A stretch of DNA of 64,000 nucleotides from Actinoalloteichus caeruleus DSM 43889 (GCF_000429185.2 NZ_AUBJ02000001.1:5146001-5210000); one strand, 5' to 3'; positions 22,967 to 26,815 are shown, counted from the stretch's first letter. Numbers and translations are program-made. Notes: generated from the sequence alone by a model not told the origin.

Positions 22967-23656
22967 CTACCAGCGGGCGGGGCGCGGGACGCCCCGGCGC
23001 GCGAAGCTGGCGGCGAGACCGGCGCCGAACAGGACGAGCGAGGTCAGCCAGGCGTGGCCCCAGGGGTCCTGGCCCACCAACCACCCGAGGAGCCCGTTCA
23101 CCAGCGCGGTGTCCCCGCCGGTGGCCGGTGTGTACAGGCCCACGAACCCGGGCACGGCGACCAGCATCACGGGCAGCACCGCGAGTGGAGCGGGCAGGAC
23201 CAGCTGGAGCACCCAGGCCAGGCCGGTCAACGCCAGCAGGACGGCCGCCGCGTCCCCGCCCCCGAAGTCCGCCACCACCTCCGGGGTGGACAACCACAGG
23301 GCGAGGGCGGCGAACCCCGAGCACCCGAGTCGGTGCGCGAGCGTCCACCAGGCCAGGCGACGCACGGCACCGCGATCGGTGGCCGGCACCCCGGAGGTGG
23401 CCCAGGTGGCCACCGCGCAGGCGAGCAGGGTGGGCATCACCACGGCGAACGGCAGCGGAACCGGCACCGAACCACCCACGGCGAAGGTCATCGCGCCGAT
23501 GGTGGCGCTGGCCAGCGCTCCGAGCAGGACGGTCCCGACGATCCACGCCGTGTTCCGCGCCATCAGGAACGACAGCAGGGGGTGGCGCGCGCGGGGGAGG
23601 CCGGGGTTCGGCTCCGCGAGACGGTCGGGGGCGCGGGAGGCGTCGGTGCCGTTCAT
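22967..23656 (-). CDS. Multi-pass membrane protein, fourth gene of secreted-protein/ABC operon
   Basis: This 229-residue protein has about six transmembrane helices after a 30-residue polar N-terminus. No family signature recognised. Its start ATG overlaps the stop of the preceding permease gene (ATGA at 23653-23656), so it is translated as part of the same operon and is probably an accessory or second membrane subunit of the ABC transporter encoded by the two genes before it. Confidence 0.8.
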   Translation of the reverse strand: MNGTDASRAPDRLAEPNPGLPRARHPLLSFLMARNTAWIVGTVLLGALASATIGAMTFAVGGSVPVPLPFAVVMPTLLACAVATWATSGVPATDRGAVRRLAWWTLAHRLGCSGFAALALWLSTPEVVADFGGGDAAAVLLALTGLAWVLQLVLPAPLAVLPVMLVAVPGFVGLYTPATGGDTALVNGLLGWLVGQDPWGHAWLTSLVLFGAGLAASFARRGVPRPARW

Positions 23657-25035
23657 CGCGAGAACGCCTCCTCGGTCAGGGCACACCCCTGGTAGGCCGC
23701 GCCGTGCCGGGACAGCCACTCCCGCCATTCCGGGACCGACAACCCGGCGAGGAAATCGGCGGCCTCCCGGTACACCCCACCAGCGTCCGCGACCGGGACC
23801 CCGGGTTGGGCGATCGCCGTCGACACCAGGGTGTTGTAGCCGGCGGCCGCGTCGGGGTCCTCGACGCCCTGCTCCACGCGTTCGTCGAAGGGGCGGAAGC
23901 ATTCGTCCAGGCCGGACAGGTTGAACGCGAGTTCCTGTACGGCGGCGACAAGGGTGCCCTCGGCGGTGTCGTCGAGGTGGACCGCGACGCCCTCCCCTAC
24001 CGGCGCCTCTCCCATTCCCCGTGGTCGGTGCTCCACCCGGTCGAAGGCCAACGGCGAGTCCCCGGCCATCTCGTGGAACACCGCGAGCCGGGCGCCGAGA
24101 TCGGCCGAGGCGTGGTCGAAGGCCGGGTGCAGGCACAGTTCCAGCTCCCCGTGCCAGGTGCACACCGGGGTGAAGGGCGGTTCGGCCGGGAGGGTGGTCC
24201 GCCCGCCCAGGGCGAGGACCGGGATGGCGGTGAGCGACGCCACGACGGCCGCCGCGCCGAGGACCGCCAGCCGCCACGGCCGCCGACGCCGGTGGCGGTC
24301 GCGTAGGCGGCACACCAGCACGAGGACGGCGAGCAACGCGAGCACGAGCCCCAGGAACCAGACCACCAACCGGAGGTGGAGGGTGGCCGGCACCGCCGTC
24401 CACACGTTGACCAGCTGCTGCCGAGCCGGGAGGAGCGCCTCCGCCGTCGGGGAGAGGGCGAAGCCGACCGCGTGGAGGGAGAAGGCGGCCAGCGCGACGA
24501 CGGGGACGGTCAGGACGTGGGGGAGGAGGACACCGACGAGATAACCGAACAGTGCGTAGGCCGACAGACCCAGCGGGGAGATCAGGAGCGCGAGTGGTTC
24601 CAGCTCGCCCCACGTGTTGCCGACGAGGATGCGGGTGGACACGGCGGCCAGGACCAGCCCCTGGCCGAGCCACGCCCAGAGCAGGGTGGCGAGGAGTCGC
24701 GCACCGTGGCGGAACCCCGGGCCCCGGACCGCCACCTCGTCCAGCCAACCGAGCCCCATCCGGTGGTCGCGGCTCGCGACGAGCGCGGCGACGCCGCTGA
24801 CCACCGGGCCGCTCGCGATGGTGGAGGCCTGCGAGGCGGCCATCGCGTTGCCCCAGTACGACACTCCCGGTGTCAGCTCGGCGAACGCCGCGAACAGCCC
24901 GAGCCCGACCACGGCGGGCACCAGCAGCCAGGCCGGGGACCGCCGGGACTCCAACAGGACGGCGTGCGCGAACGCCGTGCGCCGCGCGCGGGACGAACCA
25001 GCGGTGGACAGCGGGTGCTCCGTGCCCTCAGGCAT
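23653..25035 (-). CDS. ABC-2-like permease with large extracytoplasmic C-terminal domain
   Basis: This 460-residue protein has about six transmembrane helices in residues 30-245 and another at about 255-280. A soluble domain of some 175 residues follows, which should lie outside the membrane. That domain holds four cysteines: two ten residues apart in CTWHGELELC, one in ECFRPF and one in GCALTEE. They could form disulfides. Its start overlaps the ATPase gene by 8 bp. I recognise the layout from other actinomycete transporters but cannot name a function. Confidence 0.8.
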   Translation of the reverse strand: MPEGTEHPLSTAGSSRARRTAFAHAVLLESRRSPAWLLVPAVVGLGLFAAFAELTPGVSYWGNAMAASQASTIASGPVVSGVAALVASRDHRMGLGWLDEVAVRGPGFRHGARLLATLLWAWLGQGLVLAAVSTRILVGNTWGELEPLALLISPLGLSAYALFGYLVGVLLPHVLTVPVVALAAFSLHAVGFALSPTAEALLPARQQLVNVWTAVPATLHLRLVVWFLGLVLALLAVLVLVCRLRDRHRRRRPWRLAVLGAAAVVASLTAIPVLALGGRTTLPAEPPFTPVCTWHGELELCLHPAFDHASADLGARLAVFHEMAGDSPLAFDRVEHRPRGMGEAPVGEGVAVHLDDTAEGTLVAAVQELAFNLSGLDECFRPFDERVEQGVEDPDAAAGYNTLVSTAIAQPGVPVADAGGVYREAADFLAGLSVPEWREWLSRHGAAYQGCALTEEAFSR

Positions 25036-25807
25036 GTGCCGACCCCCCAGCGGGGATCGCGAGGCGGCGCAGGTAGGCGGCTTCGACGGCTTCCGAGCGC
25101 GAGCCGTCGGCTCCCTCGGGCGCGAGGAACTCCTCCAGCGTCCCCTGGAAGCGCACGTGACCCTCGGAGAGGAGCAGGACCGAGTCGGCCACCGCCGCGA
25201 CGTCGTCGGTGAGATGAGTGCTGAGCACGGTCGGGGTCTCCTTGCCCACCGCGCGGACCAGGGCGCGGAAGGAGGCTCGCTGCGCGGGGTCGAGACCGAC
25301 CGTCGGCTCGTCCAGGACGAGGAGCGCCGGCTCGTTCACCAGGGCGCAGGCGATGCCCAGCCGTTGCAGCATGCCGCCGGACAGTTTCCTGGTCCTGGTG
25401 CCCGAGCTGGCCGCGAGACCGACGGTGCCGAGCACCCGCGCCGCGTTCTCCCGCGCCCGTCGGGCGGAGAGCCCCTTGCTCCACGCGGTGTAGCTGACGA
25501 ACTCCAGGGTGGAGAAGGAGGGCAGCGCGGTGAACCGCTGGGGCAGGTATCCCGTGCTGGCCCGGATCGCCTCCACGCCCGAGGGGCGGCTCACGTCCTG
25601 ACCGCATACCAGGAGCGAGCCGCCCTGGGGGCTGAGCACGCCCACGATCGTCTCGAGCAACGTGGTCTTCCCCGCCCCGTTGGGGCCGAGGAGGCAGGTC
25701 ACGCCCTTGTCGACCGAGAAGTCGATGTCGTGGAGGACTGTCGTTCTGCCGCGTTGTTGCCGCAGCTCGTCAGCCTTCACGAGTGGGGTGCTCAGCACTG
25801 TTGTCAT
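25028..25807 (-). CDS. ABC transporter ATPase (CcmA/drug-exporter type)
   Basis: This 259-residue ATPase has Walker A GPNGAGKTT near residue 41, signature KLSGGMLQRLG, Walker B LLVLDEPTVGLD and an H-loop STHLTDD. The domain organisation is that of ABC-2 exporters. Its ATG overlaps the stop of the secreted-protein gene (ATGA at 25804-25807), so the ATPase depends on translation of that gene. GTG 25798 is an alternative start with better spacing from GGAGG. Confidence 0.92.
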   Translation of the reverse strand: MTTVLSTPLVKADELRQQRGRTTVLHDIDFSVDKGVTCLLGPNGAGKTTLLETIVGVLSPQGGSLLVCGQDVSRPSGVEAIRASTGYLPQRFTALPSFSTLEFVSYTAWSKGLSARRARENAARVLGTVGLAASSGTRTRKLSGGMLQRLGIACALVNEPALLVLDEPTVGLDPAQRASFRALVRAVGKETPTVLSTHLTDDVAAVADSVLLLSEGHVRFQGTLEEFLAPEGADGSRSEAVEAAYLRRLAIPAGGSAHA

Positions 25808-26196
25808 CCTCCGCAGGATCTGATCTCTCGAGGGGGCGTGTCGTGATACGTGGTGTTTTGGGTGAAGTACCCGCGAGCATAGTAGCCACGAGTATTGCCG
25901 TTGTCGCAGGCGCTGACTGTGGCCACGTAGCCGGTCTTGGTTCCGCTGTCAGCGTTTTTCGCTACGAGCGGGTCCGGTGAGAGCCAGCGGTTCCACTTGA
26001 TTTCAGCAGTCAACGTTCGAGTTGTGGAGCTGGAACAGGTGGAAGCTGCGCGGCCGATGAGAAGGCCGTTGTTGGTTGTGAGACTTACAGCAGGGTTGCT
26101 GCAGCCTGGGGGGGTTGCTTCGGCCGGTGCTGCTGCTATCAAGCCAGCAGCACCGCAGGCGGCGGTGAGAGTAAAGGCCGCAATCAATCGTCTCAT
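25804..26196 (-). CDS. Small secreted cysteine-containing protein, first gene of ABC operon
   Basis: This 130-residue precursor has a Sec signal peptide of about 28 residues (MRRLIAAFTLTAACGAAGLI and then an APAEA cleavage site). The mature part of about 100 residues carries four cysteines (GCSNP, STCSSS, SACDNG, RSCGG), consistent with two disulfides, and is rich in Thr, Ser, Asn and Tyr. ATG 26196 follows GGAGGA. Codon use is far less GC-biased than in its neighbours, suggesting recent acquisition. It is the first gene of a four-gene overlapping operon with an ABC transporter. The lactococcin-972-like WxxG/Y pattern is absent, so it is not obviously that bacteriocin family. Confidence 0.82.
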   Translation of the reverse strand: MRRLIAAFTLTAACGAAGLIAAAPAEATPPGCSNPAVSLTTNNGLLIGRAASTCSSSTTRTLTAEIKWNRWLSPDPLVAKNADSGTKTGYVATVSACDNGNTRGYYARGYFTQNTTYHDTPPREIRSCGG

Positions 26197-26284
26197 GTGG
26201 TCCTCCGGATGGTGGTCCTCCGAATGTTTCTTGGTTGCAGAAAGAACGTATAAGGCGCTGTTTGTTTTGCGCAAGCAGGAGATC

Positions 26285-26300
26285 TGTGATGGGCATCACA
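26285..26300 (-). promoter_or_regulatory. CRP-type operator upstream of the secreted-protein operon
   Basis: TGTGATGGGCATCACA matches the CRP consensus TGTGA-N6-TCACA exactly and is a perfect 7-bp inverted repeat. It is 89-104 bp upstream of the secreted-protein ATG. A possible -10 (TATACG) reads on the minus strand at 26247-26252, which would put the site roughly 50 bp before the transcript start, suggesting activation. Confidence 0.65.
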
Positions 26301-26815
26301 ACCTATTCGGTCTCTTGATGGTGGTCCTTTTGGGGTAGGCAATGTTCGTGCGCTGGGTTTTTGACTTGACTGAAAATTTCACACCTTATATTTCATGTGC
26401 GGCGGCAAGGGAGGCTGCTTGTTTGGTCAACGTCCTTGATGGAAGGTGCGAATGGTCAAGGGTTGGGTTGGGGTGTACGTTCGTTGCTGGCAGGCTGTGC
26501 CGTCTGGTCCCGAGTTGGATGCCACACATGATCGGCGTGTTCCCATCTCGAGGCAAGGTAGTGGAGTTGGTGCTGTGTTTCGTTGCCTGCGGTGTCCGTG
26601 AGGCGACGGCGGTGGCTTGACATTGGCTGATTCGGTCGGCTGGGCGATGGAATCTTTTAGGTTGGTGGGCAAGGGTGTCGTGCGCCCGCTGCGAGTACAG
26701 GCGTGTCGGAGGGGGCGGCGAAGGGGTGGCTGGCGTGCTTCCCATGGGCTGTCTTGTGGGGGCCGGGGTGACGTTCCTCCCCAGGTTTGCGGTGGGGCGG
26801 CGGCACGGGAGAGTA
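26301..26815. other. AT-rich intergenic region
   Basis: About 500 bp of distinctly lower GC than the rest of the window, upstream of the secreted-protein operon on one side and the LexA-box gene on the other. Several short frames exist but none has a ribosome-binding site and family resemblance. The composition matches the secreted-protein gene and suggests both came in together. Confidence 0.4.

What the first reader, a model, noticed from the sequence alone, without database searches (positions are those of the whole stretch)
22967..26300. Four-gene operon coupling a small secreted disulfide-type protein to an unusual ABC transporter
The genes for a secreted 100-residue protein with four cysteines, an ABC ATPase, a permease with a 175-residue extracytoplasmic domain (also four cysteines) and a further membrane protein overlap at every junction (ATGA, 8 bp, ATGA). 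They are preceded by a perfect CRP consensus site. The first gene is much less GC-rich than its neighbours. I do not recognise the secreted protein as any bacteriocin or lipoprotein family. It could be a secreted toxin/signal with its dedicated exporter or immunity machinery, or a substrate-sensing partner of the permease ectodomain. Families like this are known as unnamed domains in other actinomycetes; the function is open.
Basis: partly seen in the sequence, partly recalled or inferred. Interest (0 to 1): 0.72.

Follow-up and report, generated by a model that had tools for sequence, protein, structure and literature searches.

The report
Secreted Ig-fold protein with ABC transporter
The window holds a real four-gene unit, also found in other actinomycetes and once inside a transposon, that pairs an undescribed small secreted protein with its own ABC transporter; it looks like a self-protection or bacteriocin-type system, but its function is untested.

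Summary
On the minus strand, 22967-26196, four overlapping genes encode a Sec-type secreted protein (mature 103 aa, four Cys), an ABC ATPase, a permease with a four-Cys C-terminal ectodomain and a second membrane protein. None except the ATPase matches Pfam, NCBIfam or PHROGs.

It is a conserved unit. Within the family (Pseudonocardiaceae), 23 of 29 strong homologues of the secreted gene lie beside the permease, nearly always in the same gene order. In three genomes of another family the unit is the only shared DNA; in one it lies inside a Tn3-type transposon.

AlphaFold predicts an immunoglobulin-like sandwich for the secreted protein, and an ectodomain resembling the M1 aminopeptidase catalytic domain but lacking HExxH. 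The secreted gene decays repeatedly while the ABC genes stay intact, as toxins do before their immunity genes. But it is under purifying selection and sometimes lacks the transporter.

Best reading: a bacteriocin-like effector with an ABC self-protection system (confidence about 0.38). A LanI-LanFEG-like resistance module is the close rival. The ABC genes are probably not its exporter. The CRP site exists but is not conserved. New variant of a known kind; function untested.

The parts
25804..26196 (-). Gene 1: secreted protein P0001, 130 aa; signal peptide about residues 1-27, mature 28-130 with Cys 32, 54, 97, 128
   Evidence: homologous to the family by mature-only profile comparison (hhalign 96%, shuffled maximum 1.9%); AF2 model pLDDT 87.7
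26116..26196 (-). Signal peptide of gene 1 (MRRLIAAFTLTAACGAAGLIAAAPAEA), type I by inspection; no conserved lipobox in the family
   Evidence: sequence; alignments
26201..26206 (-). Shine-Dalgarno GGAGGA of gene 1
   Evidence: sequence
26285..26300 (.). Perfect CRP-like palindrome TGTGATGGGCATCACA, about 90-105 bp upstream of the start codon
   Evidence: not conserved in relatives
25028..25807 (-). Gene 2: ABC ATPase, 259 aa; start codon overlaps the stop of gene 1 (ATGA)
   Evidence: PF00005 E 1.2e-28
23653..25035 (-). Gene 3: permease, 460 aa, about 7 hydrophobic segments then a C-terminal ectodomain; overlaps gene 2 by 8 bp
23656..24189 (-). Ectodomain of gene 3, residues 283-460, four conserved Cys (292, 301, 379, 451) and the C[VL]H motif; M1-peptidase-like fold predicted, no HExxH
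22967..23656 (-). Gene 4: second membrane protein, 229 aa, about 6 hydrophobic segments; start codon overlaps the stop of gene 3 (ATGA)
25874..26738 (.). AT-richer segment with gene 1 and its upstream region; no counterpart in the congeneric genome G023, whose permease is 98% identical

Best explanation
A two-part competition/self-protection module. Gene 1 is secreted through the Sec pathway and folds as a disulfide-locked immunoglobulin-like sandwich that acts outside the cell as a bacteriocin-like effector (inferred). Genes 2-4 form one ABC-2-type transporter (ATPase dimer, permease with ectodomain, second permease half). Its ectodomain, an inactive M1-peptidase-like domain (fold predicted, capture role inferred), recognises the effector or its target complex at the producer's surface, and the transporter removes it, giving immunity (inferred). 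Shown here: the conserved four-gene unit, the signal peptide, the predicted folds, the absence of the zinc motif, the asymmetric decay of gene 1, and the mobility of the whole unit. Toxicity, binding and immunity are inferred. It works like the lactococcin 972 type of system but is not a member of that family.
For: Conserved unit: 23 of 29 strong homologues in the family adjacent to the permease; all three homologues in another family sit in the same four-gene order. The unit is the only DNA those three loci share; one lies with resolvase and transposase genes between 39-bp inverted repeats matching at 34 of 39. Gene 1 is lost or broken next to intact ABC genes in several lineages: G023; stops, frameshift or fragments in L117, L118, L132/L157 and L153. 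Gene 1 homologues are duplicated around one ABC set in L109 and two divergent modules lie back to back in L023. Sec-type signal peptide plus beta sandwich match what is reported for lactococcin 972-like bacteriocins, which form a beta sandwich, are thought to use Sec, and are followed by presumed immunity and transporter genes; strains lacking the bacteriocin peptide occur (PMC11796350). In many loci a strong stem-loop follows gene 1 (z about -3 to -8.5), a layout that by general knowledge favours an excess of the first product. Modules with gene 1 lack the ECF sigma/zf-HC2 genes found with many transporters without it (23 against 35 loci, no overlap), as expected if no inducer has to be sensed.
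Against: No activity data. Six strong gene-1 homologues lie away from any permease, and two of those genomes (G071, G164) show no permease at the cut-off used. Gene 1 is under purifying selection (dN/dS 0.10-0.26) and not hypervariable. Its net charge varies from -5 to +6. The transporter is broader than gene 1 (126 against 36 of 297 family genomes) and often linked to ECF sigma factors, so it has a function without gene 1. In L098 and L107 the gene stands beside the permease only, without an adjacent ATPase. The stem-loop is absent in the window itself.
Confidence: 0.38

Rival explanations
1. Resistance module working like LanI-LanFEG or CprABC: gene 1 is a secreted scavenger or adaptor that binds a foreign antimicrobial (or its target) and genes 2-4 expel it; gene 1 is an optional helper.
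For: Gene order small secreted protein - ATPase - permease - permease parallels LanI plus LanF, LanE and LanG, where LanI binds the lantibiotic and LanFEG effluxes it (PMC5786555). The ATPase matches the lantibiotic-protection ATPase model TIGR03740 (E 9.7e-36). The transporter exists without gene 1 in most genomes and is often preceded by ECF sigma and zf-HC2 anti-sigma-like genes, as an inducible resistance pump would be. Purifying selection and stand-alone gene-1 homologues fit. Cargo of a Tn3-type element fits a resistance trait.
Against: The TIGR03740 score is far below the curated cut-off (123.5 against 309.75 bits) and many other ABC ATPase models score alike. Gene 1 has no lipobox anchor. 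Modules with gene 1 have no linked sigma/anti-sigma genes, odd for an inducible resistance pump. No antimicrobial biosynthesis gene was noted next to the window operon.
Confidence: 0.28
2. Signal or sensor: gene 1 is a secreted signal or ligand-bound co-receptor that docks on the ectodomain and the transporter transmits the state of the envelope to the cell, as BceAB does to its kinase.
For: Homologues of the transporter without gene 1 sit with ECF sigma/anti-sigma genes; the ectodomain is large, disulfide-rich and lacks the peptidase motif; L107 has a gene fragment resembling a histidine kinase just downstream (by eye).
Against: Modules with gene 1 have no linked sigma/anti-sigma genes; gene 1 is lost while the transporter stays.
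Confidence: 0.14
3. Uptake or envelope-maintenance system in which gene 1 is a soluble binding protein for a nutrient or envelope component.
For: First gene followed by a stem-loop, as in many binding-protein operons; purifying selection.
Against: Some permease-family members resemble ABC-2 transporters (PF12698 weakly), an exporter/extractor type; a domain of about 100 residues with an Ig-like fold and no anchor; sporadic distribution and mobility.
Confidence: 0.1
4. Genes 2-4 are the dedicated exporter of gene 1.
For: Co-localisation only.
Against: Gene 1 and its homologues carry a Sec-type signal peptide; homologues occur in genomes without a detected transporter.
Confidence: 0.04

Closest known systems
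Lactococcin 972-like bacteriocin loci (lclAB plus ABC ATPase; scbABC)
   Same: Small secreted beta-sandwich protein, a multi-pass membrane protein and an ABC ATPase in one locus; natural loss of the secreted gene with partners kept
   Different: No profile match; four conserved cysteines (lactococcin 972 has none, from memory); ATPase before permease; an extra permease gene; M1-like ectodomain; actinomycete hosts
LanI plus LanFEG lantibiotic immunity and CprABC resistance transporters
   Same: Small exported protein with one ATPase and two permease genes, order I-F-E-G
   Different: [quoted passage not shown] the permease carries a large ectodomain; no lantibiotic genes noted nearby; ATPase far below the family cut-off
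BceAB-type transporters
   Same: Permease with a large extracellular domain
   Different: BceB has about ten helices with the domain between helices VII and VIII; here about seven segments and a C-terminal domain, plus a second permease gene and no two-component system noted
M1 family aminopeptidases (catalytic domain)
   Same: Predicted fold of the ectodomain: nearly all of the 50 best structural matches, Z 5.5-7.6 over about 150 residues
   Different: No HExxH in any of 70 ectodomains; no support from profile-profile alignment; Z below 8

Membership tests
Lactococcin 972 family | Sequence profile match of the bacteriocin | tested here: not met
   No Pfam or NCBIfam match for P0001; only chance-level matches to unrelated models among relatives
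Lactococcin 972 family | Partner membrane protein of the lactococcin 972 immunity type | tested here: not met
   P0003 and P0004 match no Pfam or NCBIfam model
Lactococcin 972 family | Sec-exported beta-sandwich protein | tested here: met
   Signal peptide by inspection; predicted all-beta sandwich; a common fold, so weak evidence
Lactococcin 972 family | Antibacterial activity | not testable with these tools
   needs experiment
LanI/LanFEG immunity | One ATPase and two separate permease genes after a small exported protein | tested here: met
   that gene 4 is the second permease half is inferred from its hydrophobic segments
LanI/LanFEG immunity | Small protein is a lipoprotein | tested here: not met
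   No conserved lipobox; mature part starts after AxA-type sites in the family
LanI/LanFEG immunity | ATPase reaches the lantibiotic-protection model TIGR03740 | tested here: not met
   123.5 bits against a cut-off of 309.75
BceAB | Ten-helix permease with the ectodomain between helices VII and VIII | tested here: not met
   About seven hydrophobic segments, ectodomain C-terminal; definition from PMC5786555
M1 peptidases | HExxH zinc motif | tested here: not met
   0 of 70 ectodomains
M1 peptidases | M1 catalytic-domain fold | tested here: inconclusive
   Consistent structural matches, Z up to 7.6, but Foldseek best E 0.49 and no profile support
Tn3-type transposon cargo (L243 only) | Transposase, resolvase and terminal inverted repeats around the unit | tested here: met
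   PF01526, PF00239; inverted repeats 34 of 39; no clear 5-bp target duplication seen

The most novel reading that the evidence does not exclude
Gene 1 founds a new class of disulfide-locked immunoglobulin-fold bacteriocins of actinomycetes whose immunity is an ABC-2 transporter using a dead aminopeptidase-like domain as effector receptor, and the whole unit moves between families as transposon cargo.
Probability: 0.25. Interest if true: 0.75.

Novelty: new variant of a known kind. Interest (0 to 1): 0.55.

Why it matters
If true, it would add a recognisable, undescribed type of secreted effector and protection system in antibiotic-producing actinomycetes, absent from Pfam, NCBIfam and PHROGs, with a simple genetic test. 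It would also give a role to a broad group of ABC transporters with a cysteine-rich, apparently inactive peptidase-like ectodomain, many of them linked to ECF sigma factors.

Tried and rejected
Pfam, NCBIfam, PHROGs and PADLOC searches found no model for proteins 1, 3 and 4. PDB sequence searches gave nothing convincing for the secreted or ectodomain profiles. Structural search of the secreted protein gave only generic Ig-like matches (best Z 8.8, transglutaminase domain). I considered neocarzinostatin-type carrier proteins (similar size, fold and two disulfides, from memory): they were not among the rows shown, which does not exclude them. Profile-profile comparison of the ectodomain with M1 peptidases of relatives failed, so the M1 resemblance rests on predicted structure alone. 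Co-divergence: gene-1 distances follow all ABC genes (r 0.77-0.81); the extra correlation with the ectodomain (partial r 0.42) fell to 0.22 and 0.11 after removing near-duplicates and then the window subgroup, so I do not claim it. The CRP site as a conserved regulator was rejected. Recent import judged by GC was rejected. No match of gene 1 on sequenced plasmids, or of a relative on plasmids or phages. A first genome-contig scan with gene 1 found nothing; an alignment of the family was too divergent to scan with.

Full report
What is in the window. Four genes on the minus strand overlap at every junction: secreted protein (26196-25804), ABC ATPase (25807-25028), permease with ectodomain (25035-23653) and second membrane protein (23656-22967), with overlaps ATGA, 8 bp and ATGA. 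The window lies at 5146001-5210000 of a 6.04-Mb single-contig genome. Only the ATPase matches any curated family. A second, diverged copy of the ABC genes without an evident secreted gene lies outside the window at 5485895-5487160.

The gene set is a conserved unit. Relatives fetched by a permease alignment are named Saccharothrix, Actinokineospora, Saccharomonospora, Prauserella, Amycolatopsis and Actinosynnema, that is Pseudonocardiaceae (family name from general knowledge). In 297 genomes of the family, homologues of the secreted protein occur in 36 and of the permease in 126. Of 29 secreted-protein hits with E below 1e-10, 23 lie within 3 kb of a permease on the same strand and 6 do not. 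The order secreted protein - ATPase - permease - second membrane protein recurs. In an alignment of 18 members, four cysteines, an arginine, an aspartate, a tyrosine and a glycine are invariant. The window protein is a divergent member: mature-only profile comparison gives 96% probability against at most 1.9% for shuffled controls that keep the cysteine columns.

It moves. A search of the order found three more homologues in another family. All three sit in the same four-gene order. The 3.1-kb unit is the only sequence the three loci share, at 82-84% identity. In L243 it is enclosed with a resolvase and a Tn3 transposase by 39-bp inverted repeats matching at 34 of 39 positions; no clear target duplication was seen. 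L245 also has a Tn3 transposase next to it and L244 an IS21 element. Among the three relatives compared the secreted protein of L243 is closest to the window's, at 40% identity. No homologue was found in a sample of 395 other genomes drawn from the phylum, nor on plasmids or phages.

Predicted structures. The mature secreted protein is predicted as an all-beta, Ig-like sandwich (pLDDT 87.7, pTM 0.78, seven-sequence alignment); matches are generic. The ectodomain (residues 283-460; pLDDT 81, pTM 0.77) gives nearly only M1 aminopeptidase catalytic domains among the 50 best structural matches, Z 5.5-7.6. This lies under the level at which a match is safe, and profile-profile alignment does not support it. 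None of 70 ectodomains carries HExxH, so if the fold is right it is an inactive relative. Its four cysteines recur (C292 and C301 invariant, C379 and C451 nearly so) together with a C[VL]H motif.

Evolutionary behaviour. The secreted gene is under purifying selection, dN/dS 0.10-0.26. It is absent or broken beside intact ABC genes in several lineages: the congener G023, whose permease is 98% identical but whose corresponding 741 bp is unrelated, and remnants with stops, frameshifts or fragments in L117, L118, L132/L157 and L153. The ABC genes of L031 are themselves damaged. The reverse (secreted gene intact, ABC incomplete) is seen in L098 and L107, which have only the permease next to it, and possibly in L034 (frame break in a draft genome).

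Regulation. In most loci with a gap between genes 1 and 2, a strong stem-loop follows gene 1 (for example L099 z -8.5, L103 -6.4, L130 -6.4, L114 -6.1). The window and its nearest subtype lack it and use tight overlap or short spacing. Of 80 permease loci scanned, 23 have the secreted gene, 35 have an ECF sigma factor and/or zf-HC2 gene upstream, none has both, and 22 have neither (one example confirmed by Pfam). The sigma and zinc-finger calls rest on sequence patterns, and the loci were not chosen at random. The perfect CRP-like palindrome upstream of the window operon was not found upstream of relatives with the secreted gene.

Interpretation. The signal peptide makes export by genes 2-4 unnecessary. 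A secreted sandwich protein, a dedicated ABC system with a surface domain, loss of the secreted gene before its partners, and mobility of the complete unit all fit a bacteriocin-like effector with self-protection, as in lactococcin 972-type loci (PMC11796350). They fit almost as well a LanI-LanFEG-like resistance module (PMC5786555), which explains better the purifying selection, the transporter's wider distribution and the stand-alone secreted genes. The absence of linked regulators in the units with gene 1 tilts me slightly to the first. Every functional step is inference.

Verdict. A real, conserved and, as far as the searched libraries and papers show, undescribed gene unit; new variant of a known kind; moderate interest until an activity is shown.

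Noticed in passing
L028, L032, L136, L137, L163-L201 (several): Transporters of the same permease family without the secreted gene are often preceded by an ECF sigma factor and/or a zf-HC2 zinc-finger membrane protein: a separate ECF-linked ABC system with the same cysteine-rich ectodomain.
   Followed up: partly
L111:5358-5747 (G143:C26): A stand-alone homologue of the secreted protein lies among genes that look by eye like an ESX (type VII secretion) locus in the genus identified as Saccharomonospora.
   Followed up: no
L100:5767-6234, L101:6282-6692, L102 (stop codon inside): Stand-alone homologues at one conserved position that looks by eye like the recA-recX region in three genomes of one genus, one of them broken.
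   Followed up: partly
L115:5036-5437, L116:5162-5563: Stand-alone homologues next to genes that look by eye like htpG, with a polyketide synthase nearby, in two genomes with no permease detected at the cut-off used.
   Followed up: partly
L243:4641-12409: A Tn3-type element of about 7.8 kb carrying the four-gene unit between resolvase and transposase; no clear 5-bp target duplication.
   Followed up: partly
L023:2545-9702: Two divergent copies of the whole four-gene unit lie back to back in one genome (G020), with only distantly similar secreted proteins.
   Followed up: partly
L109:4640-8180: Two copies of the secreted gene flank one ABC set in G268; the first reading frame departs from the family near its C-terminus.
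   Followed up: no
window:23653-24189: The helix QELAFNLSG in the ectodomain resembles the M1 active-site helix HELAHQWFG with both zinc-binding histidines replaced; by eye only.
   Followed up: partly
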